In this document: positions 46,313-63,572 of the stretch, one piece after another
How positions within the stretch are numbered: the stretch's first letter is position 1
How the letters are laid out: the number at the start of each line of letters is the position of its first letter
Assembly (NCBI RefSeq): GCF_033472595.1
Contig: NZ_CP137642.1
Coordinates: forward strand, 1,488,001 to 1,552,000
Origin: Methanoculleus receptaculi
GTDB lineage: Archaea > Halobacteriota > Methanomicrobia > Methanomicrobiales > Methanoculleaceae
Length of the DNA stretch: 64,000 bases
Direction: 5' to 3'
Notes under the pieces: generated by a model
What the model saw: only the letters and a program-made list of their open reading frames with translations
The model's database searches: none
Told to the model about the DNA's origin: nothing
Program-made: the position numbers and the translations under genes

Positions 46313-46318
46313 GCTGTA

Positions 46319-47224: not shown

Positions 47225-47389
47225 TTCACACTCCGCCATGGCCGTTTCCTGCGGCGTCTTGAGGCAAGCTTCGACCTCAGTCTATTAACGTTTTCTGTGT
47301 CAATCATCTACACGTCGTGCGGCCAATCAAGATCAGCGAACCTGGAATATGGACTTTCCATCATTTTGGGGCATGGGGATGTGTGGGGG

Positions 47390-47892: not shown

Positions 47893-49101
47893 TCAGGGTC
47901 TTTGCCTGCGTAGGGCGACCGCGACCACAAGGGCGCCTATGACGCCGGCGGTTCCCCAGGCCGTTGCCGGGGTGGTGGTGGCCGCAGCCTCAGTTGTGGT
48001 CATTGGAGCGGTTTCTGTCTCCACGGGCGTGGTATCATCCCCTGCCCCGACTGCCGCGTAGGCCATAAGGGCATACTGACCGCCGCTTGAGACCGTGGCG
48101 GCGAGGCGCGTCTCCCCCTCATACCGGGAGGGCACCACCGTCCACGCCCCGTCCCGGTATACCGCGATGAACGGCGTGGTTGCGTTCACGCCCGAGAGGT
48201 TGAACGATAGGGCGGCGGCCGGGTCAAATGTGGCGGCTGACGGGGAGATGATGTATGATCCGGCAAGAACCTGCCACTCATCTGGAACCCCTGAGGGTGT
48301 GCTCCTGATGATCCGCAGGTCAGCAGGCGCCGCACCATCTATCGCATCATCCACGGTCTCAAGGGTGACAATCCCATCAAGCGAGGAGACCGTCACGGTT
48401 TCAGGCGCGGCGGTCGGTGTCTCCGTTGCGCCGCCACCGGAACTGCCGCCGGAACCACCGCTGGGCGGAGGGGTGGTGGGAGATGTTGTCGGTGTGGTGA
48501 TTGTGGGGTTGCCGACAAGGATCGTCTGGTCGGTCACGATGTTTCCATCCACAAGGGCAATGACATGTGCGGAGCCGTCGGTGATACCGGTGAGGCTGAA
48601 GGTGATCGCCCCCGAATCCGGGCCCATCTTGACCCCGGAGAACTCAAGAACAACGTTCACGGCATCGACACCTTCTTCCGGTGTCCCGAACGCCTTGATG
48701 AGTTCCATCGTGCCGGCGGGGAGGTTGCCAAGGCTCTGGCTGATCGATACGGTACCTGTCCTGCTGATCTGGGTTATTCGTTTGATGGTCTCCCCCTCGG
48801 AGGCCTCGATCCCGGCTTCCGTGACCGGGGAAGCACTGAGAACAACCTGAGGACTGTTCAGGCCAAAGGGCATGCTGACCTGGTTTGCCTGGTAGGTAAA
48901 CGAGGTCTCCCCTGCGACATCCACCAGCGACTCCATCCGGAGGGCAAAGACGCTCCCGTTGGAGAGACCGCTGTAGGAGACGGTGATGGTATCCCCCTCC
49001 TGGATCTGGGACGGGCTGATGGAGATGGAGACGGCAGAGGCGCCCGGAACCAGGCAACAGAGGAGAGAGAGAACTATGAGGCACAACACGTTAAATCGCA
49101 T
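47893..49101 (-). CDS. Surface protein with C-terminal membrane anchor, cohesin-system member
   Basis: A 402-residue exported protein. After a signal peptide (MRFNVLCLIVLSLLCCLVPGASA) come a beta-rich domain of about 190 residues (SISPSQIQEGDTITVSYSGLSNGSVFALRM...), a Thr/Pro/Gly-rich linker near residue 210, a second beta domain (residues about 240-360) and the anchor WGTAGVIGALVVAVALRRQRP. The second domain resembles the corresponding part of the neighbouring 1049-residue protein: both have S-P-S-A-x-F-D-P-A, then W-x-V-x-P and a closing strand. It is the last gene of the minus-strand surface cluster. Start at 49101 rather than 49164, since it gives a signal peptide. Cohesin identity of domain 1 is uncertain. 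Confidence 0.75.
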   Translation of the reverse strand: MRFNVLCLIVLSLLCCLVPGASAVSISISPSQIQEGDTITVSYSGLSNGSVFALRMESLVDVAGETSFTYQANQVSMPFGLNSPQVVLSASPVTEAGIEASEGETIKRITQISRTGTVSISQSLGNLPAGTMELIKAFGTPEEGVDAVNVVLEFSGVKMGPDSGAITFSLTGITDGSAHVIALVDGNIVTDQTILVGNPTITTPTTSPTTPPPSGGSGGSSGGGATETPTAAPETVTVSSLDGIVTLETVDDAIDGAAPADLRIIRSTPSGVPDEWQVLAGSYIISPSAATFDPAAALSFNLSGVNATTPFIAVYRDGAWTVVPSRYEGETRLAATVSSGGQYALMAYAAVGAGDDTTPVETETAPMTTTEAAATTTPATAWGTAGVIGALVVAVALRRQRP

Positions 49102-49221
49102 ATTCTCACATCGGATAATTCTCTCTCCAAGATACCTAAAAGTTACCGATACAGAAATCTGCAAACGGCAGACTCATGAGGAACTGCAAATGGTTGAGAC
49201 GCCACGAAAAAAAGTTGGTTT

Positions 49222-52200
49222 TCAGGGTTTTCTGGTGTAGTAGTAGACACCGACGGCGATCACCAGGATGATCACCACGGCGATGACCACGTATGTCCAG
49301 GGGAATCCTTCCGCTGGCGGCGTCACCGGGGTCGTCGTGGTGGGTGTGGTCGGTGTCACAATCGGCGTTGTGGGTGTTACGACGGGCGTCACCGCACCGG
49401 GCTCAACAAAGAGACCGAATACGGTGAAGTGCTCAACGCTTGCGGTGACAGTCCGGGTGGCCGGATCGACAACCGTCGGGACGGTCTCCCACTCCCCGGC
49501 CTCTTCGTCGTACCACTTCACCACGAGCGATGATGCGTCATACTCCGCCGCCTGCATTATCTCGCTCCACTGGTCCGCATTGAACGTGAAGATGAGGCTG
49601 ATGGCTGGATCAAACCTCGCTCCCGACGGCGAACAGACTACCGCATGGCCTGCGAAGGTGTAAGCGGCGCCGGCCGGGACAGCGGGGAGATCGGCGGGGT
49701 CAAGGTCATCGATGCTGACCTCGGAGAGCGGGTTGCCGTCAGCATCCACAGCGTAGGTTCCAAGCGGCAGGTTAAGTTCGGTGATGCCGGATGGGCTGCG
49801 GATGGTGTAGGGCCTGAGGAGTTTCCCCTCACTGCCGATCAACAGCGAGGAGGAGCCTGTCTCGGGTGCAAATCCGCCACGGCCGCCGCCACCGCCGCCG
49901 CTCGGGGGGGTGGTGGGCTGCGGCGTTGGGGTCGGAACTGGGCCGGCAAAGAGCTGCACCGAAGTGGAGCCGTAGGCGGTCAGATTCCCGCCGTTCTCAG
50001 CCAGCATGTGAACTCTGTAGGTGCCGCTGAGGAGATCGGATGTGGGGATGTTCAGCGTCGCCGCATTGGCGGCCCTGGCCGCGTTCCCGTAACCTTCCGA
50101 TATCCAGACGTTTGCACCGCTGTAGAGTATCTTCACCGTCTCGTTCCCGTCACCGAGCAGGTACATGCTCTGGAGGGACCCGGTTCCAAGCGTGGTCAGG
50201 TCGAGGGTCACATTACCGGTGTAGGTCGAGCCTTCACGGATCAGCACCGCGGCAACGTTCTGCGGAGCAGCACCGCCCCAGTTCACCACCACTGGGTCGC
50301 CAAGCGAGTACATGCCCGCCGACGTGGAGAACTGCGATGCCTCTTCAGTCACGACAAACGGCATCGCGGTGATGGCTGCGACCCGGTCGTTGTCAAGCGT
50401 GATGGCCATGATGACATACTCACCGGGGCCAAGCTCGGTCTGGTCGTAGCCGATTGGAAGACCCAGTCCATGTGTGGCGGTATTGAATCCCGCGGAGAGG
50501 TCGTAGGAGTTTGCCCTGATCATGGTGGGGAGATCCGTATTGAAGGTGAAGCCTCCACTGCCGCCGAGATCGGTGGCAGTGCTGCCAGTGATCCTGACAA
50601 ACTTGTATCCGTAACTCCCGCCGCCCTTGCCGTAGATGACGATCTTCTCCTTCGAGAGAGCCTGTTCAAGGGAACTCGTCGAGACCGATGAACTTCCGCC
50701 ACGGAGCACCTGATCGACAAAGGAACTGTTCGCCATCCCGATGATGATGGTGGCGTTGTCGATGTTCGGCACGTTGATAGCAAAGTTCAGCGTCCCGCCG
50801 GATGGTGCAACAAAGTAGGGCGCTCCGGTTGGGAAGGTGCCAGCGGTTATGTCGTCGTTTGCCCGGTTATCGACCACAACACCGGAACCTGCGGTCACCC
50901 GCTTCTGGAAGGTTCCAAGCGTCGGGAGGTTCATCTCGCCGGCGCCGCCGGAGATGCTGATCGCCTGAGCGACCTCGCTTGTAAAGACGTTATACGCCGC
51001 TGTCTTTGTCAGGTCCAACCCGGCGAACGTCCCCGCGGAAGACTCATCGATGTAGGCCAGGTAGTTGTTGTAGATGTGGAAGGGGGAACTGGTATTGCTG
51101 TTGCCCGCTTTATCAACGGCCGTCAGGGTTGCGTTCCGGTTGCCGAGGGTATTGCCCTGCGCGGAACCATACACGAGTGTACCGGGGGAGGACGTGTTTG
51201 ATGCCGAACCAATCCAGACCACGTCGGGGTTTGCATCGGTCACGGTATAGGCGATGGTCAGATCCTCGTTTGCCTCGGGGTAGCCGTCACCATCGGAATC
51301 GCTGATCCCTGTAACAACCACCACTGGCAGAACCGTATCCTTGGTGAATGTCTCTGTGGCGCTGAGTACAGAGGAGTCGATCGTGCTCGTCCCGTTGACC
51401 ACCACGGTGTGAACACCATCGGCAAGCGGTCCATAGGAACTGTAATCAAGCGTGATCACACCAGATGATGGTGTCGTGGTGTTGGCGGTAACATTGGTTC
51501 CGTCAAGGAACATCCGCACCCCTGTCACCTCGACATAGCGCGCGGATATCACCGGTTGTGTTTTATTGGTGAATGTGCCGTCCAGGTTCGGGTCGAAGGT
51601 GATACCGGATTCGGCAACTGTGATGTTACGGGTGGCAGACGCATGATTGCCGCTCGTGTCTGAGGCGCTGACCACCACTGTCCTGGCTCCAAGAGGAACG
51701 TTCGTTGCGGTGCCGCTAACAGTGCAGCCGCCGGTAATGGGTGTGATGGTCGGTGACGTGATCGCTACCCCGCCGACAGTGATACTGATGCTGGATTGGT
51801 CGACACCGCCCACATCGGTGATGGTCGCGGTGACCGCCACATCCTGCGGCACGGTCGCCCCGTCAGCGGGCGAGGTGATGATTATGTTGGGGGCGACTTC
51901 ATCAAGTGTGGTGAAGGTGCCGTTGACGGTGGTATAGGTGTATACCGGAACCCGGGACTCCTCGATATCGATGATTGTCAGGTTTAGAGTGGTCGAAGAC
52001 CCGTCGTTCTTAAGCGCGGTACAATCCAATCCGAAAAGTGGGCTGTCACCTGTGATATTGGAAGCACGCATATTGGCATACCCAACGACTTTTGCAAGGC
52101 CGGGCGTACTGAAACCATAGGTAATAGACCAATCATCCGGATCGAAAGTTCCGTTTCGACTTACGGACATCACTGATGCATCATATGCCACTCTTATATC

Positions 52201-52371
52201 AAATGCATCGAGACTCGAGGCACCACGTACATATACTCCAACAGGCGCACTTGTTCCTTGTTCCACATCATTTGCACTATCGATCACAATCTCCTGTGCA
52301 GAGACCGGACCGGTGCAGGCCATAAGAAGGACGAGTATAAGACCCGTCCATAACAAGCATCTGAAATTCAT
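49222..52371 (-). CDS. Large membrane-anchored surface protein with N-terminal cohesin-like domain
   Basis: A 1049-residue exported protein. After the signal (MNFRCLLWTGLILVLLMACTGPVSA) a cohesin-like domain of about 140 residues opens with IVIDSANDVEQGTSAPVGVYVRGASSLDAFDIRVAYDASVMSV, the typical strand order of cohesins. Several Ig-like repeats follow (PNIIITSPADGATVP..., SISITVGGVAI...), then a central part of about 400 residues that I do not recognise (from LAYIDESSAGTFAGLDL to LFAGPVPTP) and that resembles archaeal S-layer-type DUF3821-like proteins. A Thr/Pro linker leads into a C-terminal domain, and an anchor FPWTYVVIAVVIILVIAVGVYYYTRKP ends the protein. ATG 52371 is preceded by GGAGGATTGT. 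Confidence 0.8.
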   Translation of the reverse strand: MNFRCLLWTGLILVLLMACTGPVSAQEIVIDSANDVEQGTSAPVGVYVRGASSLDAFDIRVAYDASVMSVSRNGTFDPDDWSITYGFSTPGLAKVVGYANMRASNITGDSPLFGLDCTALKNDGSSTTLNLTIIDIEESRVPVYTYTTVNGTFTTLDEVAPNIIITSPADGATVPQDVAVTATITDVGGVDQSSISITVGGVAITSPTITPITGGCTVSGTATNVPLGARTVVVSASDTSGNHASATRNITVAESGITFDPNLDGTFTNKTQPVISARYVEVTGVRMFLDGTNVTANTTTPSSGVITLDYSSYGPLADGVHTVVVNGTSTIDSSVLSATETFTKDTVLPVVVVTGISDSDGDGYPEANEDLTIAYTVTDANPDVVWIGSASNTSSPGTLVYGSAQGNTLGNRNATLTAVDKAGNSNTSSPFHIYNNYLAYIDESSAGTFAGLDLTKTAAYNVFTSEVAQAISISGGAGEMNLPTLGTFQKRVTAGSGVVVDNRANDDITAGTFPTGAPYFVAPSGGTLNFAINVPNIDNATIIIGMANSSFVDQVLRGGSSSVSTSSLEQALSKEKIVIYGKGGGSYGYKFVRITGSTATDLGGSGGFTFNTDLPTMIRANSYDLSAGFNTATHGLGLPIGYDQTELGPGEYVIMAITLDNDRVAAITAMPFVVTEEASQFSTSAGMYSLGDPVVVNWGGAAPQNVAAVLIREGSTYTGNVTLDLTTLGTGSLQSMYLLGDGNETVKILYSGANVWISEGYGNAARAANAATLNIPTSDLLSGTYRVHMLAENGGNLTAYGSTSVQLFAGPVPTPTPQPTTPPSGGGGGGRGGFAPETGSSSLLIGSEGKLLRPYTIRSPSGITELNLPLGTYAVDADGNPLSEVSIDDLDPADLPAVPAGAAYTFAGHAVVCSPSGARFDPAISLIFTFNADQWSEIMQAAEYDASSLVVKWYDEEAGEWETVPTVVDPATRTVTASVEHFTVFGLFVEPGAVTPVVTPTTPIVTPTTPTTTTPVTPPAEGFPWTYVVIAVVIILVIAVGVYYYTRKP

Positions 52372-52396
52372 ACAATCCTCCACTAAATCTATGTTG

Positions 52397-53170
52397 CTAT
52401 CTTCTTTTTACTGCTATAAAGATTGCGATTAGCATCCCACCCAGAACCGGGATTGATGAGAGCGGCGTGGTCTGTGTGGATGCCGGGGGAGACGCCGACT
52501 GAGTCGGGGTCTCTCCCGTAACCACGGCCTCCCCGGTTGCTGGCGGAGGCGTCGTCGCGGTCACGGTGGGACTCCCGGTTGCAGGGGTTGTCACCGTCAG
52601 CGTCACGCTCACCGGCGGCGCCGTCCCGGTCACCTCTATGGGTGTGGGTGGCGCCCAGGGGACGTCGACCTCCGGTGGGACGGTGGCAGCGGGTGAGGGG
52701 GCGGGCGTCACAATCCCCTCCTGCGTCAACGGCGGGAGAGGTGTGGTTGGTTCCGATGTGGCCACCCGTCCCTCGACCGGGATCGGGTTACGGTCACCGT
52801 CATCCAGGTATTCCACCGAGATCCCGGTGACAGTGAAACCCGGCCCGGCCTGAATCCGTGCGATGGGAACTTGTATCGCCCTGTCGGACTCCGATGGTGG
52901 TGCCGGTATAAATCCAACTATCCGCATGGTCCCCGCGGAATTGTTTATGCTGGAGAATACCTCGAAAGGATCAACCGCCTCGACGGATGTCACCGGTGTT
53001 CCGGGGTCATAATTCACCTGAACCGTGAAAGCACTGACTGTATAAGGTTGATCGCCGGTGAAAACCAGGAGATACATCCCATCTTCCGGTTCAACGGTGA
53101 TTACTGATGCCCCCGCAGAAATGACCAGGAGGAACAGCCCTATTGCCGCGATGAACCAGTTTCGCTCCAT
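52397..53170 (-). CDS. Short cohesin-like membrane-anchored protein
   Basis: A 257-residue exported protein: a signal segment (NWFIAAIGLFLLVISAGASV), one cohesin-like beta domain of about 120 residues (VEPEDGMYLLVFTGDQPYTVSAFTVQVNYDPGTPVTSVEAVDPFEV..., later RIVGFIPAPPSESDRAIQVPIARIQAGPGFTVTGISVEYL), a 100-residue Thr/Pro/Ser linker and a C-terminal anchor (TPLSSIPVLGGMLIAIFIAVKRR). It stands between the thioester protein (16 bases upstream) and the 1049-residue protein (25 bases downstream), so these are co-transcribed. The N-terminal ligand-binding half would present a dockerin partner near the membrane. Confidence 0.78.
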   Translation of the reverse strand: MERNWFIAAIGLFLLVISAGASVITVEPEDGMYLLVFTGDQPYTVSAFTVQVNYDPGTPVTSVEAVDPFEVFSSINNSAGTMRIVGFIPAPPSESDRAIQVPIARIQAGPGFTVTGISVEYLDDGDRNPIPVEGRVATSEPTTPLPPLTQEGIVTPAPSPAATVPPEVDVPWAPPTPIEVTGTAPPVSVTLTVTTPATGSPTVTATTPPPATGEAVVTGETPTQSASPPASTQTTPLSSIPVLGGMLIAIFIAVKRR

Positions 53171-53185
53171 GCATCCCTCAAAAAA

Positions 53186-56100
53186 TTACTGGTAGTGGGT
53201 GTCAATATCACCTACAAGGTACCACGCCACATCCCTTGCATCACCGCTGGAAACAGATCCATCGTCACCAACGTCCGCATAGAACCGATCATTGTAGGTG
53301 AAGGTTATCTCATCCACCAGATACCACGCGATGTCACGCGCATCCCCTGCGGTCACCCCCCCACCGTTGACATCACCAAGTGCACGCCCAATGAACTCAA
53401 CAACGATCTGGTCGATGCTTCCGGTATCAACGTCCGGAACGCTCAGGACGCCACCCGAGATGTAACCGCTGGCATCGAACGGACCCTGCCATCCAGACGT
53501 GTTGTGGTAGGAGTATGCAACTGTGTCGTTGGCATACGCAGTCCCGATGGCCCGTGTGATTGTCGGCACCTCCACCGATATGGTGGCAGTCCCGCCGCTG
53601 CTGGTGATGGTCGAGTTGAAGGTCTTCTTCGCCGGGGTCACCGCGCTCCAGTAGTTCGTGCTGTCTTCGCTGATGGTGTCCTCGATTACTGGCGGCATGA
53701 CCCTGAAATCACCGGCATCGCCGACAACCATGGAGATGTGCGGGATAGTGGGATCGGTCGCAATCTGGGCGGAATACTCTGTGGACTCACCTGTTCTGAC
53801 GTAGAGGGTGGTGTTCACCGTGCCGGGGGTATGCATGATAGAGACGTTGTGGTCGCCCTCAAGCACCTCCCTGGTGATGTTGCTTGTTCCGCTTGCCACC
53901 GGCACGCCGTCGATATAGAAATCGGCCTCTAGCGGTGCCAGGTTCTCATCGACCACAGAGAGGGTCAGGTTGCCGTATCCCTTCACAGAGGCAGTGGCGT
54001 CTCCAAGCGCCATGTTCTCGTCATCGTACATCGGATAGATGCGCGCCTCCACGGTCACTTCACCGGCCTTCGTGAAATTCAGCGGGACATAGAAGTTCTT
54101 CACTTCGCCTCTGACCACGCTCGGCTTTGATTCGTCATCGGAACCCGGGTAGACGTAAAGCGTCTTCGCCGTAGCGTTGTACATGTGAGATATGTAGACC
54201 CTTGATCCGCCGCCATCCATGTAGTAGGCCATATCGGCGGCCATCTCACCTCCATCGAACGCTACGCCATCCCGGGTCGGGATCTCAAGGATCAGCATCG
54301 TCCGGTCATCCCCGGTGTTGTTGACCGTGAAGGCCACATCGACCGTGTCATTGACGACAATCCCGTCCTCAGGTGCCGGCACCGTCACGTCCAGGAAGAG
54401 GTCGGTCGCTATGGGGTCGATGAACTCATCGGGGATTGTTGCAAAGGCAACGGACTTTGGCACCTTCTGCCGGCTCTGGACAGCGACAACGAGCTCGGCC
54501 GCATCCATCGCTGCATCGCTCTTCCCGGTTATGGTGACCTTACCCGTGTGGTTTGCTCCAGGGGTGCTGCCGTAGAGAGCGGCGATCTCGCTGCCGTTGA
54601 GGTTGAATGATACCCTGGGGTTGGTGCTGTTGAACGTGTAGGTCTGCGGCGCACGGATCACCGCCCCGCTGCTGTCCTCAACACCGATCTGAACATTGAA
54701 ATTGACGGTTGAAGGTATCTGGACCTGGGTCAGCGCTTCGATCACCGCTGCGGTTCCGCGGGTGTTGCCCCAGCGGCCGTTCGTGTCATAAACGCTCACC
54801 AGGTAACGGATACCCCCGCGAACGGTCTCGTTCTCGGCCGGGAGGCCTGTCCTGTTCAGGGCCAGCACCGCGTTTGCGGTGTCTTCGTAGGCCCAGGAAG
54901 AGCCCCAGTGGTAGCCGTTGGCGGCATCGCCCTGCCGGAGTTCAAGGAGCCTATCCTGGAGTTCACCAAGTTTCGCATCCGCCTGGGCATCGAGGGTAGC
55001 GTTATCAGCGTAGTGGTCGCGGATGGCGTCTATACCGAATACGGCGTAGGCAATCGGCGTTGCTGACTGGGAGGTGTAGTCTCCACGAACCAGATAGTCA
55101 AACGACCTGTTCAGCGACTCGTTCACCCTCCGCTGGCCTTCAGGGGTCAGGTAGCCGAACTCACCGACAAACTTCTCGGATATGAACCCGGTCCACTCGT
55201 AAGAGTTGCTGATGTAGCCCCAGTCAGACCAGCCGCCGTTGGTCCCCTGCCTCTTCAACAGCCAGACGGTGCTTGCCGTCAGGTTGATCTCACTTTCGTT
55301 TGTAAGGTCGAAACCCCAATATGTGGGATCATTATCCATGTCCTGCCTTAACTCGCTGAAGACATAATTAGGATAGAGTGTGTAGAACATCGATGGAGCC
55401 GAGTTCTGACCCCACGCCCAGCCACCGGACTGGTCACCGTAGTTAGTGTATATCGGCAGCTGCTGAGCGTTGTAGCCGTCCGGCGCCTTCATCTGGTTGT
55501 AGGCCTGTTGCATCTTGGCCTGGTAGGTGGCGTTGCGCTCATCGTTCAGCTGGCCGCGTGACTCGTAGTACTGCTTCACCCGCAGCACCGCAAGCGCCGG
55601 GCTCATCGTCTGCTCCGGGCAGCCATGCGGATAGCCGATCAGGTAGTCAAGCCCCTCAAGGGTGCGCCCCTCCGCTCCTGCAGCGGCGGTGATGACAACC
55701 TCGCGCCCCTCAAACGGCTCGCGGTTGAAGACATCAAACAGGATCTCGCCGTTGGCCTCATTATCCAGTATGGTCGAGTTGAGCACCTTGATGTCCACAT
55801 TCTGTTCACGGACAACGATCGTGCCGTTCACATGGGTCTGCTCCCCCCGGGACTCAAGATTGATGGAGTAGTTGTAGGTTCCAAGCTCCCTCGGCCGTAT
55901 ATAATACCACCCGACACTGTTCCAGGACGATGAGTAGGAGTAGATCGACATCTCTGCAGGGTAGTAGTAGTAAAGATCGAACGGCGTGTCCTTGCTCAGG
56001 TCAACGGCGGTGCCGTTTGCATACCAGATCGATAGGCTGGCGTTGACGTAGCCGGGCTGGTTGGCAGTGAAGTAGGTGCCAAGCCAGAAGTACTGGTCCT

Positions 56101-58285
56101 GAACTGCGGTGACGTTGTAGCCATACCACCTCTCCCAGTTCTGCCTGTTATCCGTCGTGATGTTCAGATCGTAAGGGTCGATCCTGACCTGAGTGCTGGC
56201 AGTGTTACCATCCTGGACATCATCGCCGGCGATCCCTGCCGCCAGGGTGTGGATGCCTGTGTCAGCAGGTTTCCAGGTGTCCACAGTGAAGTAGCGGCTC
56301 TGGTATGCCCCGAGAGCAACTTCATCCTGGCTCCAGATAACCGTCCCGCCGAGAGTGACGTTTGCCGAGACGTTCACCGGGGTTGCCTTCGGGTTGTTGA
56401 CGTAGACGGTGGAGGTGACGTTGCTGCCCACGGCTGATGCCGTCGGCGCCCAGATATAGACACGGGCATCGGTTAAACGATCCTGAATGAGGGTGCCCTT
56501 CGTGATATCAAGTTCAAGGTATCTGTTGTTGTTGGTTTTGACGTAAGCAGCCGTTGTCGAACCGATCTCTGATACCCGTCCTGAATCGGACTGGGCTATG
56601 AACCGGAGATCCACCACTTTTGTATCGTCCGAGAGGGAGAGACCGCTACCCTCTACCAGAAGACGCCCATAGCCTGTGCTCCGGACGCTCACGCCCGACT
56701 GCGCCCCCTCATACCCGTCGTAACGGGCAACCGATGGATCGTAGGTCACAGGGATGCTGAAGGAGACAACCGGTGCATCGCTTGAGATGTTTGAGAGCTC
56801 GATGGGAAACAGACTGCCCCCTTCGCTGATCACATTCAGCCGGGGGAAGATAACCGTCACCGGCTTAAAGGAGGCATACTCCTTCTCGATGGTCTTTGAG
56901 ACCGTCCCGCTATCCGGGTATTTGATCCGCTCTTTAGGCTTCTCTCCGTTCGGTCCGGCGGCGTTTGCCTCCACGGTGTAGGTCACGCTCCCGGCATACC
57001 GATCGAGATTGATGGTCTCTGTCATTGTCCAGTTATCACCGGGCAAAAGAGCAGGGACATCATAGGTTTCGTTCACGCCGTTCTTTGAAACGCGGAGCCA
57101 TGTTGGCTCAGAGTCTACGCCAGGGGCTATGTTCTCAACACCGTAGGTCACACGGTATGTGCCCGGCACCACATCCTCCTGGATGGTGGTATTGCTGCTG
57201 GAAAGCCCGGAGACCAGCGTGATATCCAGGACCGGCCGGAGGTCGGTGTAGGTGACGGTTGTCTGCGCCTCGATGAAGTTGTTGTAGTAACGAATCTCCT
57301 CGATCGTGTGGTCAGGATTGATATCGATTGAGACCTGCTTCGTCCCGGGCGAGATATCGGCTCCGGCGGTTATTATCAGGGTCACGGAACCGGTCTCCTT
57401 CACCTCAACGACCTCGGTGCCCGAGTAGTTGGGATCGATCGTTATATCGGTAAAGATTGTGTAATTGGCGCCGGCTGCGATATCATCCGTAATTGTGTAG
57501 TTCTCACTTTCACCTACAAACGTGACCTGCGTCACGATCTCATCGGTCACACCGGCCCCGCCGATGTTTCCAATCACGAAGGTCGGGTTCATGTAGATGG
57601 TGCCGTTGCTGTACTTCTTGACATACTGCGGCGGTGCAGGGTCGAGGTATCCGACCAGATCAGGCAGCGGCGGTGGGGTGGTATTCAGCCATCCCTCTGT
57701 AACATGTTCAAAATGTGACTCGTTAAACTCAGTGCTGTAGGTTGCTTCCGGGTAGAGAGAGTAGTTGCCGGGAGTCTCTCTATAGGTGTCGAAATGGATC
57801 TCGGCTATCTGCACCGGTGCCGCCCCCACGGTAAAAGGTGCCGTGGTGGTGATTGCAAACTGCAGGTGTCCGGGATGATCCGCCATGTATGTGAGGTTGG
57901 CACCCGCAAGCGGCCCGGTGAGGTTGACGGACTTCACCGTACCGGCGCCCTGACCATAGAACACCCATACACCGATCCCCTCGATCTCGTCAATGTTCGC
58001 CACCGATACCGGGATCACGGCGGGTTCGCCCGCTTCAACCGTCGCCGATCCGAAGATTATCGTTGATGCCGGGTTTGGCGGCGCTGCAACCGTCTCCTCT
58101 GCGGCTGCAGGGAGATCTTCATCGAGAGACGCTTCCGTCTCCGTGGGTTCAACATCAAGCCCTGGAGCAACCGTCATGCTCCCGTTCTCAGGAGCGGTCG
58201 CCCCCTCCGTCCCCGCGGCGGCAACACCGCCGATGAGACAGATTGAGAGGATACACATTATCAGAATCTGCACATAATGTTTCAT
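53186..58285 (-). CDS. Giant surface protein: cohesin-like domains, thioester domain and dockerin
   Basis: A 1699-residue exported protein with a signal sequence (VQILIMCILSICLIGGVAAAGTEG). Near residues 73-195 lies a cohesin-like domain (STIIFGSATVEAGEPAVIPVSVANIDEIEGIGVWVFYGQG...), then CARDB-type sandwiches near 207-440, a second cohesin-like region near 470-590 (LFPIELSNISSDAPVVSFSIPVTYDPSVARYDG), more sandwiches, and near 880-1150 an alpha-helical region with the motif YPHGCPEQTM (Cys889 and Gln892). That is the alpha-2-macroglobulin/complement thioester signature with the surrounding toroid helices. The end has two dockerin-like loops, DVNGGGVTAGD (one residue short) and DVGDDGSVSSGD, each followed by AWYLV. 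It has no transmembrane anchor. Confidence 0.82.
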   Translation of the reverse strand: MKHYVQILIMCILSICLIGGVAAAGTEGATAPENGSMTVAPGLDVEPTETEASLDEDLPAAAEETVAAPPNPASTIIFGSATVEAGEPAVIPVSVANIDEIEGIGVWVFYGQGAGTVKSVNLTGPLAGANLTYMADHPGHLQFAITTTAPFTVGAAPVQIAEIHFDTYRETPGNYSLYPEATYSTEFNESHFEHVTEGWLNTTPPPLPDLVGYLDPAPPQYVKKYSNGTIYMNPTFVIGNIGGAGVTDEIVTQVTFVGESENYTITDDIAAGANYTIFTDITIDPNYSGTEVVEVKETGSVTLIITAGADISPGTKQVSIDINPDHTIEEIRYYNNFIEAQTTVTYTDLRPVLDITLVSGLSSSNTTIQEDVVPGTYRVTYGVENIAPGVDSEPTWLRVSKNGVNETYDVPALLPGDNWTMTETINLDRYAGSVTYTVEANAAGPNGEKPKERIKYPDSGTVSKTIEKEYASFKPVTVIFPRLNVISEGGSLFPIELSNISSDAPVVSFSIPVTYDPSVARYDGYEGAQSGVSVRSTGYGRLLVEGSGLSLSDDTKVVDLRFIAQSDSGRVSEIGSTTAAYVKTNNNRYLELDITKGTLIQDRLTDARVYIWAPTASAVGSNVTSTVYVNNPKATPVNVSANVTLGGTVIWSQDEVALGAYQSRYFTVDTWKPADTGIHTLAAGIAGDDVQDGNTASTQVRIDPYDLNITTDNRQNWERWYGYNVTAVQDQYFWLGTYFTANQPGYVNASLSIWYANGTAVDLSKDTPFDLYYYYPAEMSIYSYSSSWNSVGWYYIRPRELGTYNYSINLESRGEQTHVNGTIVVREQNVDIKVLNSTILDNEANGEILFDVFNREPFEGREVVITAAAGAEGRTLEGLDYLIGYPHGCPEQTMSPALAVLRVKQYYESRGQLNDERNATYQAKMQQAYNQMKAPDGYNAQQLPIYTNYGDQSGGWAWGQNSAPSMFYTLYPNYVFSELRQDMDNDPTYWGFDLTNESEINLTASTVWLLKRQGTNGGWSDWGYISNSYEWTGFISEKFVGEFGYLTPEGQRRVNESLNRSFDYLVRGDYTSQSATPIAYAVFGIDAIRDHYADNATLDAQADAKLGELQDRLLELRQGDAANGYHWGSSWAYEDTANAVLALNRTGLPAENETVRGGIRYLVSVYDTNGRWGNTRGTAAVIEALTQVQIPSTVNFNVQIGVEDSSGAVIRAPQTYTFNSTNPRVSFNLNGSEIAALYGSTPGANHTGKVTITGKSDAAMDAAELVVAVQSRQKVPKSVAFATIPDEFIDPIATDLFLDVTVPAPEDGIVVNDTVDVAFTVNNTGDDRTMLILEIPTRDGVAFDGGEMAADMAYYMDGGGSRVYISHMYNATAKTLYVYPGSDDESKPSVVRGEVKNFYVPLNFTKAGEVTVEARIYPMYDDENMALGDATASVKGYGNLTLSVVDENLAPLEADFYIDGVPVASGTSNITREVLEGDHNVSIMHTPGTVNTTLYVRTGESTEYSAQIATDPTIPHISMVVGDAGDFRVMPPVIEDTISEDSTNYWSAVTPAKKTFNSTITSSGGTATISVEVPTITRAIGTAYANDTVAYSYHNTSGWQGPFDASGYISGGVLSVPDVDTGSIDQIVVEFIGRALGDVNGGGVTAGDARDIAWYLVDEITFTYNDRFYADVGDDGSVSSGDARDVAWYLVGDIDTHYQ

Positions 58286-58307
58286 ACATCATCACATCCA
58301 TGGCTGG

Positions 58308-58316
58308 CTATAAAAC
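58308..58316 (-). promoter_or_regulatory. TATA box of the thioester-protein gene
   Basis: Read on the minus strand, GGTTTTATAGCC lies 25-35 bases upstream of ATG 58285, matching leaderless or short-leader transcription. The neighbouring subtilase gene ends at 58375, so this is a second promoter inside the surface cluster. Confidence 0.5.
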
Positions 58317-58374
58317 CCTTCCTGCGGCATGTGCCACAGAAGAGCATACACCTGTTCATCAGTCACTCCTGAAA

Positions 58375-61300
58375 TTAAAGTGAGGTGATCTTCCCCACAT
58401 AGTAGTAGGCGATCTTCGCTGCATCGGCGGCGTCCACCTTCCCGTCGCCGTTGAAGTCCGCCTCCATGTTCACGTCTGTTAGCCCGAGGGCCATCCAGGC
58501 CACCCGTGCAACATCCCCTATATCAACGCGCCCGTTCCCATTGAAGTCGCCCTTCACGTGGGGCGCCGTCATCTGGAGAGAGTAGCCCGAACGGGTGGTA
58601 AAGACAAGGTCAGGCGTGCCGCCGCCGATCTCCCAGTAGACTTCCGCGTTCTCCGGCACATTCAACGTAAGAGTTGCACGCCCGTTTGCATCGGTCTCCT
58701 GAATACTTGAACCTCCGGAGTGCCCATAAATGGAGCCTCCACCATAGATCGGGTAGATCTCCCAGGCCAGGTAGACAGGTATACCCGCCTCACCGTTCTC
58801 CATCCGAACCTCGATGCTCTTTGACCCGGGGGTATCGTAATACTGCTCCGGCGGTGTCACTATGGAGAGGGGGGTTGCTGCGGTATAGATCGATATCCAT
58901 GTCCAGGATCCCTGTGAGGCTAACTCCTTCATGTAATGGGTGATGGCGTATGATCCGTAGGTAACCGCACCTGCATATGAACCACCGCCGGTCGTATACT
59001 GTGAGGCAAGTGTCGTCGCGCCTGTACTGTAATAATGATGCATTCCCCCTATCTGCCGGTTAACCTCGAAGATCCCGGGCATCGGGACGATCTCACCATC
59101 GGCGTTCGTGACGGTGGACGAGGCCACAAGGCTCCAGCCTACGTACTCCCCGATCAGCAGGACGATCGGCCCCTCGGGAGAGAGACTGGTCCATCCATAC
59201 GCATCGCCGGATAGGCCGACCACCTGGACCTGGTTGTAATATTCAAAGTCTCCCGGGAACCGGGCCGCTACAGGGATGGTGACCGAACCGTAACCGTCGG
59301 TCCCGGTGGTCACCACCGTGCAGCCATCAGATGTGTAGAGGTAGACCGTCCCGGCCAGCGGTGCACCCGTATCACCGTCCTCAAGGTAACAATCGACGTC
59401 GATCGCATCTCCCGGATCAAACCGCTTTGTGGTCTCATTGTAGGTGCTGTTCCATGACCCCCCGATTGAGAGCCACCGGTCATGGGTCGCCTCTGGGACG
59501 GAGGCGTGGTGCATGAACGGATCCAGGTTGACCAGGATTATTGCAACGGTCTCATAATACCCAGACCCATATTCCTGTACCTCCTGTACCACCATCCCCA
59601 CGTATGCATCCTCTGGAACAGGGATGCTCAGTTTCCCTATACCGTTTGTGGTCGTGAAGGTGACCTGCTCCATCGACTCCTGCAGGTTGCTGATCTCCTC
59701 CATAAACTCCGGACTGAAACCTCCGGCCTCGCCTCCGCGAAGTCTTGCGGTCTCTTCGGGGAATTGAGCAGCAAGCGACTTCACTTCAGCCTCACGGAGC
59801 CAGACAACAGACACCGAATGGGTGCTGTCTGCCACAGGGGCACCGCCAAGAGATTCATACATCTTGACCACGAATGTCGCGTTGCCGCCAGGTTTTGCCG
59901 ATATCATGTATGGCGCGACCTCGGTGACCGTCTCAGCGTAATCGATAAAATCGATCCAGCCCGCGCCGACCTCCGCCTCTTCGCTCATGTTATCCGCGGG
60001 ATAGAGGTAGACAGGACTCCCGTACCGATCCTCTCCAAGCATCTCCCGTGTTATATCCGCGGATATCGTCCCGTTCACCGGGATGAATGTCTGACTGTAG
60101 GAACCGATCTGCATCACCACATCACCGGTGTAGGGCGCCATGGTGGCGGGGTTCACAAGCGTGTAACTGACTGTGGCGGTCGCGTTGACTGGCACCCGAT
60201 ATTCTTTGTCTGGTGTGTCAAAAGCCTTTAACGGACTCCTGTAGCCATCGTAGGTGTATATATCAGCCGAAACCACATTACCATGTGTATCGCTCACGTT
60301 GTACTGGTAAGAGATGTAACCCCCTCCCACAGGCACGAACGAGGCGATGGCCAGCCCGTTCTCATCCGTCATCACGGTGATGTTCAGCACGGTGGCGGTG
60401 GAATTTGTTACTCTAAACCAGATCTCCTCATCGGCAACGGGCCCATCATCCCAGGCGATCGCGGTGATGTTGTTCTCAACGCCGGGCTTGAGGTATGTGT
60501 ATGCGCATCCGGCGTACAGCCCGGGCTGATCATACACCGGAGGCTGGAGCGGGGTGATGTTGTCCACCGCCGCCCAGGCGCTCACCCGGCCGGCACCGTA
60601 GTCGGTGTCAGGACCGGTCCGGCCGAGGTCGATCGCCGTCCGCTGGAGAACTGATCTGATCTCGGCGGGGGTAAGCGAACTGTTCACATCGAGCATCAGG
60701 GCAACCACCCCCGAGACATGGGGACAGGCCATGGAGGTGCCGGACATCGTCGCGTAACCGCCCCTACGGTCTGTCGATACAACATACGATCCAGGAGCGA
60801 CCAGATCCGGCTTTATCCTCTGGTTTTCGCCCCATCCCACAGGGCCGCGGCTGCTGTACGCCGCTATATAGTCAATAGACTCATCAATCGCTCCGACGGC
60901 GATTGCCTTCTCCGCGGCGGCGGGAGCGCCGATGGTGCGAAGCCCGTAATCTCCATCATTCCCGGCTGAGGTTACCACCACTGTGCCGTTCAGATCGACT
61001 ATCCGGTTCACAGCCTGCGACTGAAGAGACGTTCCGTTATCCGCATAACAGGTGGTGACGCTGAAATAGACTGGGTACTCCTCGGGGATGCAGCTCCAGC
61101 CGTAGGAAATCCACTCACCCTCATCCTCTTCACCCTCATCCTCTGCATCGTCGTAATACCCGATCTCGGGGATCGCCATCTCGTCGACATACCAGCCATA
61201 CCAGGCAACGCTATAATCAGTCTCGTAGCGGAGGCGTAACTCGATCACCCCGCCGCAGTATGGTGTCAGATCGGCGGTCGAAACGCCCTGCCCCACACCT

Positions 61301-62637
61301 GTAAAGGTGAGGAGAGTATCCCACTCTTCAGTCTGTGGGTTGCAAACCTCAACATAACCGTTATCCCAGCCCTCCTCGATGTCATACCAGGAGGTGATCT
61401 GGAAGGTGGCCGATTCCACCCCCGTCAGGTTGAACTCCCGCGTCAGGGTGTTATTAAGGTAATCAACGGATCCCGACCACCATACATGGTCGCTTGCGTT
61501 GAGCGAAGGGTTCTCTATGCGGAGCGTCCAGTTGCCCGGCTCGAGGGGTTCATCCCCGATGTACTTCACCATCCCCACATAATCGGGCACCGGAGTAGTC
61601 CACCAGTCGCAGTCCACACCCGGGTAGACCGTTCCACCGGGCGTCTCCAGGGTGACATTCAGCGCGGAATAAAGCGGCGCCTCCACCTCAAGGCAGATGA
61701 AGCCGGGGTCGAAACCATCATTCCAATTTTCAACAGGGATCTCAATCTCGAGGCCGGAGTCGATGGCCAGGTAATCCCCATCCACATAAAACCCGATGCT
61801 CCCACCGCTGTAGGATATAACATCCGCCCCAAGTTCCACGGCGCGCTCAAAACCGCGGATGACGGTAGAGGAGTTCGCACGCCCATTCGAGTCGAAGACC
61901 TTGATACCGATCAGGCGAGCTCCTGGTGCAACCCCGGTCTTTGTCCCGGATGCACCCGTCCCGGCGATCGTCCCGGCACAGTGGGTGCCATGGCCGTGAT
62001 CGTCGTAGGGCTCTGTAAGGTCGTTTACAAGGTCATCCCAGTCGACAACCTTGCCGGCGAGGTCGGGGTGATCGGCATAGATCCCGGTGTCCACAACGGC
62101 CACGGTCACCCCTGTGCCGTTAAACCCGTTCTCCCAGACCTCGGGCGCCTCGATCCAGTCCACGCCCCAGGCGATATCCTCTGAGTCCATCGGCGGAGGG
62201 TTGATGTAATCGATCGTCTCGCCCGCCGGTTTGTAGAAGTTAATGCCACGCTCACCCTTCTCCGAAGGGGTGTCGGCATCGATGGTGACAATCCGGTCCG
62301 GCACCACCATGGCAACATCGCTTCGGGCAGCGATCTTCTGCACCTCCTCGGGACTGAGGGTGGCGGCAACAGCGTTAACCGACCATAGCGGTGTCACATC
62401 AGCAGCGCCCATCTTATCCAGGGTCGCTATCACGTCTCCCTGGGACTGATCGGCAAACGCCGCAAGTTCAGCAGGCCCCGCGCTTGCAGGAGCCTGCTCT
62501 TTCATCACGATTATCACATGCTGCGCCTCACCGGTGAGCGGTGCAGCAGACGCAGCCCCTACCAGAAGCAGGGAAAGCAGAATGAGGTGTAGTATAACAC
62601 GCACGGCAACCACATCAGGATAAATGAAATACCTCAT
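58375..62637 (-). CDS. Large subtilisin-like protease with inserted domains and C-terminal dockerin
   Basis: A 1420-residue exported S8 peptidase. A signal peptide (VRVILHLILLSLLLVGAASA) and an I9-type propeptide (HVIIVMKEQAPAS...VAMVVPDRIVTID) precede the catalytic domain. Catalytic residues are Asp183 (AVVDTGI), His216 (GHGTHCAG), oxyanion Asn560 (SAGNDG) and Ser635 (GTSMACPHVSG). The distance from His to Asn is over 340 residues, owing to an inserted region that resembles a proprotein-convertase P-domain (NWTLRIENPS) and a MAM-like sandwich (WDNGYVEVCNPQTEEWDTLLTF). Beta domains follow (700-1350), and the end has two clear dockerin loops, DFNGNGRVDIGD and DFNGDGKVDAAD. Substrate unknown. 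Confidence 0.93.
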   Translation of the reverse strand: MRYFIYPDVVAVRVILHLILLSLLLVGAASAAPLTGEAQHVIIVMKEQAPASAGPAELAAFADQSQGDVIATLDKMGAADVTPLWSVNAVAATLSPEEVQKIAARSDVAMVVPDRIVTIDADTPSEKGERGINFYKPAGETIDYINPPPMDSEDIAWGVDWIEAPEVWENGFNGTGVTVAVVDTGIYADHPDLAGKVVDWDDLVNDLTEPYDDHGHGTHCAGTIAGTGASGTKTGVAPGARLIGIKVFDSNGRANSSTVIRGFERAVELGADVISYSGGSIGFYVDGDYLAIDSGLEIEIPVENWNDGFDPGFICLEVEAPLYSALNVTLETPGGTVYPGVDCDWWTTPVPDYVGMVKYIGDEPLEPGNWTLRIENPSLNASDHVWWSGSVDYLNNTLTREFNLTGVESATFQITSWYDIEEGWDNGYVEVCNPQTEEWDTLLTFTGVGQGVSTADLTPYCGGVIELRLRYETDYSVAWYGWYVDEMAIPEIGYYDDAEDEGEEDEGEWISYGWSCIPEEYPVYFSVTTCYADNGTSLQSQAVNRIVDLNGTVVVTSAGNDGDYGLRTIGAPAAAEKAIAVGAIDESIDYIAAYSSRGPVGWGENQRIKPDLVAPGSYVVSTDRRGGYATMSGTSMACPHVSGVVALMLDVNSSLTPAEIRSVLQRTAIDLGRTGPDTDYGAGRVSAWAAVDNITPLQPPVYDQPGLYAGCAYTYLKPGVENNITAIAWDDGPVADEEIWFRVTNSTATVLNITVMTDENGLAIASFVPVGGGYISYQYNVSDTHGNVVSADIYTYDGYRSPLKAFDTPDKEYRVPVNATATVSYTLVNPATMAPYTGDVVMQIGSYSQTFIPVNGTISADITREMLGEDRYGSPVYLYPADNMSEEAEVGAGWIDFIDYAETVTEVAPYMISAKPGGNATFVVKMYESLGGAPVADSTHSVSVVWLREAEVKSLAAQFPEETARLRGGEAGGFSPEFMEEISNLQESMEQVTFTTTNGIGKLSIPVPEDAYVGMVVQEVQEYGSGYYETVAIILVNLDPFMHHASVPEATHDRWLSIGGSWNSTYNETTKRFDPGDAIDVDCYLEDGDTGAPLAGTVYLYTSDGCTVVTTGTDGYGSVTIPVAARFPGDFEYYNQVQVVGLSGDAYGWTSLSPEGPIVLLIGEYVGWSLVASSTVTNADGEIVPMPGIFEVNRQIGGMHHYYSTGATTLASQYTTGGGSYAGAVTYGSYAITHYMKELASQGSWTWISIYTAATPLSIVTPPEQYYDTPGSKSIEVRMENGEAGIPVYLAWEIYPIYGGGSIYGHSGGSSIQETDANGRATLTLNVPENAEVYWEIGGGTPDLVFTTRSGYSLQMTAPHVKGDFNGNGRVDIGDVARVAWMALGLTDVNMEADFNGDGKVDAADAAKIAYYYVGKITSL

Positions 62638-62813
62638 TGGTATTAAATCATTTCATTCACCGGGGCTGATCATCCCCGCGTCATGTCAACAATCCTCCCC
62701 CGGCCAAAATCCATTCATTCACCGGAGATGGGAGAGACGCCTCGGCCCCTGCCGGATCACCGCGGCATTTTAGCATGCGCCGCCCCAGCATTACGTCATA
62801 TAAAAAGTTATGG
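62638..62813. other. Short gap between subtilase and cohesin genes
   Basis: No gene is seen. A direct repeat of the motif TTCATTCACCGG (62652-62663 and 62712-62723) lies here, and ATTTAATACC read on the minus strand (62640-62649) could be the subtilase TATA box, very close to the start. Confidence 0.4.
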
Positions 62814-63572
62814 TTACCGTCTCTGAAAGATACATAGAGCAGCCGCGATAGTAAGGGCAAGAACGGCTGCAACCGTGGAGAGCGGTGCTGGTGCCGGGGT
62901 CGTCGGTGTTTCATCACCAGCATGAGTTGGAGGGGCGGTCGCCGCGGTTTCAGGGGTCACGGTTTCATCACCTCCGGTTTGCGGGGTGGTCATCACCGGT
63001 GCAGGTGTCTCACCGGTTCCAGCGGTCATGGTGGCCGCCGCAGGTGCCGGCGTAGATGTCTCGCCGCCCCCTGCGGCAGACCCGGTTCCACCTTCACCTC
63101 CGCTGCCCGCCGCCGCTGTGCCGGCGGTAACCTCGCCTGCGGCAACGCTCTCAAACGCGATCGAGGAGAACGCCGGGAAGTCGCTCCAGCGGGCATCCTC
63201 AAGTGTCAGAGAACTCGAACCGCCTCCCGCCGCCGAGAAGGCCGCCTCCACCAGCGGTGCCGGGGACGGTATATCGACGGGGTCGGGAAAGATCACCAGC
63301 ACCCTGGCCCGCCCCGCTTCGTTCGTGTTCAGGGTCATGGATGCATCGGCATACGCTGACGCCAGTTGTATCCCATCAAGGGTCACCACACCCGGATCAT
63401 ACCGGAGATCGAACTGGACGCTTGTGGCCTGAGATATGCCCGAGACCATCACAGGCAACCATCTCCCGTCCGCCGACCCGGAAGGCGCCTCAAGCAGGGA
63501 TGCAGCCTGCACACCACCACCCGCAAGCGAGGTGCAGAGTATCAGAAGGATTGCAAGGCTTCGTGTTTGCAT
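62814..63572 (-). CDS. Membrane-anchored cohesin-like protein, first gene of the surface cluster
   Basis: A 252-residue exported protein. The signal peptide (TRSLAILLILCTSLAGGGVQA) is followed by a cohesin-like beta domain of about 120 residues (LPVMVSGISQATSVQFDLRYDPGVVTLDGIQLASAYADASMTLNTNEAGRARVLVIFPDPVDIPSPAPLVEAAFSAAGGGSSSLTLEDARWSDF), with the YDP and closing hydrophobic strand patterns of cohesins. A Gly/Thr/Ala/Pro-rich linker leads to the anchor PLSTVAAVLALTIAAALCIFQRR. It lies 176 bases upstream of the subtilase gene and is the obvious candidate to hold the subtilase dockerin. The start at 63572 is chosen over 63638 because it gives a proper signal peptide. Confidence 0.78.
   Translation of the reverse strand: MQTRSLAILLILCTSLAGGGVQAASLLEAPSGSADGRWLPVMVSGISQATSVQFDLRYDPGVVTLDGIQLASAYADASMTLNTNEAGRARVLVIFPDPVDIPSPAPLVEAAFSAAGGGSSSLTLEDARWSDFPAFSSIAFESVAAGEVTAGTAAAGSGGEGGTGSAAGGGETSTPAPAAATMTAGTGETPAPVMTTPQTGGDETVTPETAATAPPTHAGDETPTTPAPAPLSTVAAVLALTIAAALCIFQRR

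What the first reader, a model, noticed from the sequence alone, without database searches (positions are those of the whole stretch)
47893..63572. Putative cell-surface cohesin-dockerin assembly built around a protease, not a cellulosome
Six consecutive minus-strand genes encode exported proteins. The subtilase and the thioester protein end in paired dockerin-like calcium loops and lack anchors. Three neighbours start with cohesin-like beta domains and end in Thr/Pro linkers plus a membrane anchor, and the sixth shares that anchor architecture. Dockerin and cohesin modules are known in a few archaea (Archaeoglobus fulgidus), but a cluster combining protease, thioester protein and anchors as one unit is not something I know to be described. 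Cohesin identity rests on pattern, not on alignment.
Basis: partly seen in the sequence, partly recalled or inferred. Interest (0 to 1): 0.88.

Follow-up and report, generated by a model that had tools for sequence, protein, structure and literature searches.

The report
Archaeal cohesin-dockerin protease-thioester surface assembly
A methane-producing archaeon and many of its relatives carry a gene cluster for a snap-together surface complex that links a protein-cutting enzyme to a complement-like protein able to bond permanently to targets, a combination not described in the literature I could search.

Summary
Six consecutive minus-strand genes (window 47893-63572) encode exported proteins. 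They hold every cohesin (five, in four proteins) and every dockerin (two) detected in this 1.98 Mb archaeal genome. Four of the six end in a transmembrane anchor. The two without an anchor end in dockerins: a subtilase with an intact triad, and a 1699-aa protein that also holds two cohesins and an alpha-2-macroglobulin/complement-type thioester domain with an intact Cys-Pro-Glu-Gln.

The unit is conserved. Of 28 genomes in one archaeal phylum with this thioester domain, all 28 keep CxEQ, all 28 have an anchored cohesin nearby, and 25 have a subtilase nearby; in one genome protease and thioester domain are fused. Thioester-protein dockerins have two near-identical halves that change together between lineages, as expected for dual-mode cohesin binding. 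In one variant (n=14) they co-vary with the anchor cohesins.

Best reading: a membrane-tethered protease plus thioester-protein complex held by cohesin-dockerin contacts, possibly capturing targets covalently as complement does. Assembly is well supported but not shown biochemically; function is inferred. The parts are known separately: archaeal macroglobulin loci with endoproteases, and non-cellulosomal archaeal cohesins. I found no description of them as one unit.

The parts
62814..63572 (-). Gene 6: signal peptide, cohesin (about 63165-63509), Thr/Pro-rich linker, C-terminal transmembrane anchor
   Evidence: PF00963 over cut-off in the genome search; non-self profile E 9e-23; anchor; dN/dS 0.37 against G002
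58375..62637 (-). Gene 5: secreted S8 subtilase (I9-like prodomain, triad D183/H216/S635, MAM-like insert) ending in a type I dockerin; no anchor
   Evidence: Pfam S8 1.2e-57, InhA-like MAM 5.8e-16, Inhibitor_I9, Dockerin_1 1.6e-7; triad motifs; dN/dS 0.21 over 445 codons against G002
58411..58554 (-). Dockerin of the subtilase (two Ca-binding loops, DFNGNGRVDIGD and DFNGDGKVDAAD)
   Evidence: PF00404 E 2.1e-8 genome-wide, over cut-off
53186..58285 (-). Gene 4: thioester protein: signal peptide, cohesin 1, CARDB/Ig-like region, cohesin 2, CUB-TED-CUB-like complement core, C-terminal dockerin; no anchor
   Evidence: Pfam TED_complement 5.3e-8; two cohesins; dockerin; fold match to CD109/TEP1/C3
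57686..58072 (-). Cohesin 1 of the thioester protein
   Evidence: E 5.8e-38, alignment holds this row; non-self profile 2.3e-11
56498..56854 (-). Cohesin 2 of the thioester protein
   Evidence: PF00963 E 6.9e-4; non-self profile 8.6e-8
54509..55723 (-). Thioester (TED) domain, alpha/alpha toroid
55610..55621 (-). Thioester motif Cys889-Pro-Glu-Gln892
   Evidence: GC(P/V)EQ in 12 of 12 aligned homologs; CxEQ in 28 of 28 genomes
53225..53380 (-). Dockerin of the thioester protein; first Ca loop one residue short (DVNGGGVTAGD)
   Evidence: PF00404 E 3.1e-5 genome-wide, over cut-off; repeat symmetry
52397..53170 (-). Gene 3: small anchored cohesin protein (cohesin about 52766-53113)
   Evidence: non-self profile 1.1e-4; AlphaFold pLDDT 88-98 over most of the domain and cohesin-only fold hits down to rank 47
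49222..52383 (-). Gene 2: large anchored cohesin protein (cohesin about 51934-52302, Ig-like repeats, Thr/Pro linker, transmembrane anchor)
   Evidence: PF00963 E 2.9e-6, over cut-off; Big_7/Big_13 weak; anchor
47893..49164 (-). Gene 1: conserved unknown N-terminal domain, beta domain, Thr-rich linker, transmembrane anchor; no cohesin (likely start 49101)
   Evidence: not cohesin: hhalign probability 7%, no PDB match; homologs beside other TED operons end in an anchor or in a dockerin

Best explanation
The six genes encode a cell-surface assembly held together by cohesin-dockerin pairs. Genes 2, 3 and 6 are membrane-anchored cohesins. The thioester protein (gene 4) works as an adaptor: its dockerin plugs into anchor cohesins, and its own cohesins, and/or gene 6, take up the dockerin of the subtilase (gene 5). 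Protease and complement-like thioester protein are thus held side by side on the outer surface. Proteolysis by the partner subtilase, or by a foreign protease, most likely triggers the thioester, which then bonds covalently to a nearby target: a surface-tethered covalent capture device working like a minimal complement or macroglobulin system. Shown: the domains, intact catalytic residues, anchors, conservation as a unit. Supported by co-variation: thioester-protein dockerin to anchor cohesins, subtilase dockerin to thioester-protein cohesin (one variant only). Inferred: protease triggering, covalent capture, biological target.
For: Cohesins and dockerins occur in this genome only in the cluster. 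TED with CxEQ intact in 28 of 28 genomes; anchored cohesin near TED in 28 of 28 and subtilase in 25 of 28. A single 2668-aa protein fuses subtilase and TED in G437, next to a dockerin protein and an anchored cohesin. Structure match to CD109, TEP1 and C3 over about 650 residues, E 1e-18. The two halves of each TED dockerin are 70% identical within a protein and 23% between lineages, 0 of 100,000 permutations, while subtilase dockerins are asymmetric (9% within, 73-77% across) and conserved. In variant B (n=14) the TED dockerin co-varies with gene 3 and gene 2 cohesins (partial r 0.61, 0.64, none of 3000 permutations) and not with the TED or subtilase cohesins; the subtilase dockerin co-varies with the TED cohesin (r 0.35, p 0.004). 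Purifying selection, dN/dS 0.21 and 0.37.
Against: No binding, thioester reactivity or protease activity was measured. In variant A, to which the window belongs, co-variation does not discriminate (n=8; the Ig control region also gives r 0.70). In variant B the region after the TED domain also correlates (0.44), so linkage contributes, and the subtilase dockerin also shows a weaker correlation with the gene 2 cohesin (0.27) in the larger-background test. In three genomes no subtilase was found near TED (G029, G037, G125); other dockerin or cohesin-dockerin proteins lie there in G029 and G125. No N-terminal MG domains by Pfam in the window protein, so a macroglobulin trap or bait region is not recognisable. 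The first Ca loop of the TED dockerin is one residue short.
Confidence: 0.6

Rival explanations
1. Protease plus inhibitor: the thioester protein is a macroglobulin-type inhibitor that restrains the subtilase or foreign proteases, and cohesin-dockerin contacts keep both on the surface, as serpins and dockerin-bearing subtilisin-like proteases are found together in clostridial cellulosomes.
For: TED protein belongs to the macroglobulin superfamily by profile and fold. Cellulosomes contain S8 peptidases and serpins proposed to inhibit subtilisin-like proteases (PMC12484212). TED and S8 are neighbours in most genomes.
Against: Covalent fusion of S8 and TED in one chain suggests cooperation more than restraint, though an intramolecular inhibitor is possible. 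No MG cage or bait region recognisable in the window protein.
Confidence: 0.2
2. Adhesion or syntrophy device: the thioester covalently fixes the archaeon to a bacterial partner, a surface or a matrix, and the protease trims surfaces or matures the adhesin.
For: Anchored Ig-, PKD- and CARDB-rich surface proteins and cohesins. ANME archaea with many cohesin/dockerin proteins live in consortia, and adhesion has been proposed there (PMC5244752, PMC9012536).
Against: Cargo in most genomes is a protease rather than a sugar-binding module; the system is absent from most genomes of the same genus.
Confidence: 0.15
3. Nutrient proteolysis: an archaeal proteolytic counterpart of the cellulosome that digests proteins for amino acids.
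For: Subtilase cargo with dockerin in many loci; in one genome a 4-cohesin scaffoldin-like protein with a dockerin.
Against: Does not explain the strictly conserved thioester motif (28 of 28).
Confidence: 0.05

Closest known systems
Archaeal alpha-2-macroglobulin homolog neighbourhoods (Makarova et al. 2021, PMC8416519)
   Same: TED with CxEQ, secreted, in Halobacteria and Methanomicrobia, in loci with Ig-domain surface proteins and endoproteases; proposed role in biological conflict
   Different: That paper's main text does not contain the words cohesin or dockerin and does not describe subtilase-dockerin cargo, cohesin anchors, dockerin symmetry or the S8-TED fusion; supplements were not readable here
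Non-cellulosomal archaeal cohesin-dockerin systems (Archaeoglobus fulgidus; ANME archaea, PMC9012536, PMC5244752)
   Same: Cohesin and dockerin modules in exported archaeal proteins; A. fulgidus cohesin 2xdh is the best PDB sequence match
   Different: ANME dockerins are reported mainly on ABC-transporter binding proteins and scaffoldin-like proteins; no protease plus thioester unit is mentioned there
Complement C3 / TEP1 / CD109 / A2ML1 thioester proteins of animals
   Same: CUB-TED-CUB order, alpha/alpha toroid, internal Cys-Gln thioester motif; fold match E 1e-18; CD109 is also surface-bound (general knowledge)
   Different: Anchored non-covalently by dockerin; N-terminal part is cohesin and CARDB-like, not a recognisable MG1-6 ring; protease partner is a subtilase
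Clostridial cellulosome
   Same: Anchoring cohesins, adaptor with cohesins plus dockerin, dockerin-bearing enzyme
   Different: No glycoside hydrolase or convincing carbohydrate-binding module; archaeal transmembrane anchors; protease and thioester cargo

Membership tests
Type I cohesin (PF00963) | Profile match and cohesin jelly-roll fold | tested here: met
   gene 3 met only by family profile and structure, not by Pfam
Type I dockerin (PF00404) | Two Ca-binding loop-helix repeats, score over gathering cut-off | tested here: met
   both over cut-off in the genome search; the 53186 copy is under cut-off when the whole protein is scanned, and its first loop is one residue short
Dual-binding-mode dockerin | Near-identical recognition residues in the two halves | tested here: met
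   for the thioester-protein dockerin; not met for the variant B subtilase dockerin
Cohesin-dockerin complex | Physical high-affinity binding of these modules | not testable with these tools
   Only co-variation; the AlphaFold single-chain trial left the dockerin unfolded
Alpha-2-macroglobulin / complement superfamily | TED alpha/alpha toroid with Cys-x-Glu-Gln | tested here: met
Alpha-2-macroglobulin / complement superfamily | N-terminal MG1-MG6 ring and bait region | tested here: not met
   No MG match in the window protein by Pfam; MG4 only in the L174 homolog
Alpha-2-macroglobulin / complement superfamily | Functional thioester | not testable with these tools
   Needs biochemistry
S8 subtilase | Asp/His/Ser triad | tested here: met
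   intact also in the variant B orthologs inspected
Cellulosome | Glycoside hydrolases and carbohydrate-binding modules on a scaffoldin | tested here: not met
   None above cut-off among the six genes

The most novel reading that the evidence does not exclude
An archaeal counterpart of the complement convertase-C3 pair: a subtilase activates a complement-like thioester protein on the cell surface so that it covalently tags attackers or competitors, the whole machine being assembled by cohesin-dockerin contacts.
Probability: 0.3. Interest if true: 0.93.

Novelty: new variant of a known kind. Interest (0 to 1): 0.8.

Why it matters
The role of cohesin-dockerin modules in archaea has been open since the Archaeoglobus modules were called an enigmatic vestige (title of the 1999 paper, cited in PMC9012536). 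Here a conserved operon gives them a specific cargo and likely partners, so the question becomes testable with five cohesins and two dockerins. It also places a complement-type thioester protein together with a protease in archaea, bearing on how old the protease-thioester partnership is and on how archaea deal with other cells. The rapidly diversifying, internally symmetric dockerins offer natural orthogonal binding pairs for protein engineering.

Tried and rejected
Naming organisms by the genome-contig scan: it reached mostly bacterial macroglobulins and only two cohesin/dockerin-linked archaeal loci, L053 and L055 (Methanogenium marinum). Docking by AlphaFold on a read-through stretch joining the gene 4 dockerin to the gene 3 cohesin (a modelling device, not a claim of read-through): the cohesin folded well, the dockerin did not (pLDDT below 50), so nothing is learned about the interface. 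Two mixed alignments with dockerin-only rows were discarded because MAFFT put cohesins on dockerins. Gene 47893 as a cohesin: rejected. An early idea that the L041 subtilase had swapped its dockerin for a cohesin: rejected, it has both. The neighbouring ABC transporter and NEW3 protein (43797-47239) as part of the system: not supported; only weak ABC-ATPase matches near three loci. Thioester protein in the closest relative G002: not found; its contig ends inside the subtilase. Rfam and promoter/terminator scans gave nothing above chance. Mirror-tree in variant A: not discriminating.

Full report
WHAT IS THERE. The window lies at 1488001-1552000 of a single-contig, 1.98 Mb archaeal genome. One genome of the same order (G112) has a contig of the same length as Methanogenium marinum NZ_JAKELO010000002, so the host is very probably a member of the Methanomicrobiales; the species is not known to me. 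Six minus-strand genes with gaps of 176, 89, 15, 13 and 57 bases run from 63572 to 47893. All have a hydrophobic N-terminus; genes 1, 2, 3 and 6 end in a transmembrane segment and basic residues, and genes 4 and 5 do not.

COHESINS AND DOCKERINS ARE REAL. Pfam cohesin hits in the whole genome fall only in genes 2, 4 and 6. A profile built from cohesins of other genomes finds five: gene 6 (9e-23), gene 4 twice (2e-11 and 9e-8), gene 2 (2e-8) and gene 3 (1e-4), against a best shuffled score of 5e-3. A cohesin alignment finds only these five places in the genome, with the reservation that they are rows of it. Searched against PDB sequences, the same alignment has the Archaeoglobus fulgidus cohesin 2xdh as best hit, and nearly all of the 26 matches are cohesins or scaffoldins. 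For gene 3, the weakest, AlphaFold gives pLDDT 88-98 over most of the domain and the 47 best PDB fold matches are all cohesins. Dockerin type I occurs twice in the genome, at the ends of genes 4 and 5, both over cut-off in the genome search. Gene 1 has no cohesin.

THE TWO CARGO PROTEINS. Gene 5 is an S8 subtilase (1.2e-57) with an I9-like prodomain, a MAM-like insert and Asp183/His216/Ser635 in place. Gene 4 carries a TED domain (5e-8). The alignment profile matches squalene-hopene cyclase (same toroid fold), CD109, C3 and TEP1. A model of residues 739-1390 (pLDDT 73, pTM 0.71) matches CD109, TEP1 and C3 at E about 1e-18 over the CUB-TED-CUB region. The thioester residues are GC(P/V)EQ in all 12 first homologs and CxEQ in 28 of 28 genomes.

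CONSERVATION. TED homologs of this kind occur in 25 of 232 genomes of the class, 7 of 40 genera, all of them in the same order, and in three more genomes outside the order in an even sample of the phylum. In all 28 an anchored cohesin protein lies within the same 20 kb. A subtilase does so in 22 by strict motif. Three more are added: G112, which has GHGSHC; G017, whose subtilase is cut off in the stretch used but whole in L033 (S8 3e-60); and G104, an ortholog cut by the contig end. That makes 25 of 28. The usual order is subtilase with dockerin, thioester protein, small anchored cohesin, large anchored cohesin, with a gene 1 homolog close by. Variant A (the window, G017, G029, G037, G041, G067, G071, G097) has thioester proteins of 1700-1990 aa with two to four cohesins. 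Variant B has proteins of about 1270-1300 aa with one cohesin, and its subtilase carries both a cohesin and a dockerin. In G437 subtilase and TED are one 2668-aa protein, beside a dockerin protein and an anchored cohesin. In G041, G067 and G071 a gene 1 homolog ends in a dockerin instead of an anchor, which suggests that a dockerin can do the job of an anchor. In three genomes no subtilase was found near TED: other dockerin proteins (beta-propeller/PKD) lie there in G029, and a 920-aa protein with four cohesins and a dockerin in G125. Of the 78 macroglobulin-type loci found in other genomes, only the two archaeal ones, L053 and L055, have cohesins or dockerins next to the TED. Between the window and its relative G002 dN/dS is 0.21 (gene 5, 445 codons) and 0.37 (gene 6).

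HOW IT IS PROBABLY WIRED. In cellulosomes, dockerins with two equal halves bind cohesins in two orientations (PMC12484212). The thioester-protein dockerins show this in an extreme form: over 12 variable recognition positions the halves are 70% identical inside a protein but 23% between lineages (24 loci; none of 100,000 permutations reaches this; 69% against 18% after removing close relatives; one locus, L153, was mis-anchored, which works against the effect). Subtilase dockerins of variant B behave the other way: 9% between halves, 73-77% between lineages. Gene conversion between the halves could also make them alike, so this is a signature and not a proof. In variant B (14 genomes), after removing the signal of TED, S8 and four other regions, the TED dockerin co-varies with the gene 3 and gene 2 cohesins (partial r 0.61 and 0.64, none of 3000 permutations) but not with the TED cohesin or the subtilase cohesin. 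The subtilase dockerin co-varies with the TED cohesin (0.35, p 0.004). Two things weaken this: the region after TED also correlates with the TED dockerin (0.44), and the subtilase dockerin also correlates with the gene 2 cohesin (0.27, p 0.005). In variant A (8 genomes) the test does not discriminate because a non-cohesin control region correlates as strongly. So for the window itself the wiring anchor - thioester protein - subtilase is an inference carried over from variant B. Gene 6 is a second possible seat for the subtilase.

WHAT IT PROBABLY DOES. Thioester proteins of this superfamily are sprung by proteolysis and then bond covalently to near targets (general knowledge of C3, A2M and CD109). 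A protease that is almost always encoded beside the thioester protein, fused to it in one lineage and built to sit on the same scaffold, is therefore most simply its trigger or its partner in processing captured proteins. An inhibitor relationship, as proposed for cellulosomal serpins and subtilisins (PMC12484212), an adhesive role and nutrient proteolysis remain open; I rank them in that order. No activity has been shown.

NOVELTY. Archaeal macroglobulin homologs near Ig-domain surface proteins and endoproteases were reported by Makarova et al. 2021 (PMC8416519, section 14). Its main text does not contain cohesin or dockerin. Archaeal cohesins and dockerins outside cellulosomes are known from A. 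fulgidus and ANME (PMC9012536, PMC5244752). A full-text search for macroglobulin with archaea, cohesin and protease gave one unrelated paper. Subscription papers, among them the 2009 survey by Peer et al., and supplements could not be read, so a mention there cannot be excluded. I therefore call it a new variant of known kinds: known modules combined into a conserved unit that I could not find described.

Noticed in passing
L174:9401-17407 (genome G437, same phylum): Subtilase, MG4-like, PKD and TED domains in one 2668-aa protein, followed by a dockerin protein and an anchored cohesin.
   Followed up: partly
L164:11892-14654 (genome G125): 920-aa scaffoldin-like protein with four cohesins and a dockerin standing where the subtilase normally is; large multi-cohesin proteins were once said to be lacking in archaea.
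   Followed up: no
window 47893-49164 and homologs in A6: Gene 1 family: conserved N-terminal domain of about 180 residues with no Pfam match above cut-off and no PDB match, ending in a membrane anchor in most genomes and in a dockerin in G041, G067 and G071.
   Followed up: partly
window 43797-47239: NEW3/carboxypeptidase-regulatory-like protein, ABC permease and ABC ATPase genes downstream of the cluster on the same strand; not kept beside the other TED operons.
   Followed up: partly
L047:8335-18881, L050:954-6717, L048:8567-13757: Further dockerin and cohesin clusters without TED in the same genus (subtilase, matrixin-like, NHL and PKD cargo), sharing dockerin classes with the TED operons.
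   Followed up: no
L053:3-4980 (MAG named Candidatus Nanohaloarchaea): TED-dockerin protein followed by cohesin-dockerin and cohesin proteins on a 5 kb contig; binning of such a short contig may be wrong.
   Followed up: no
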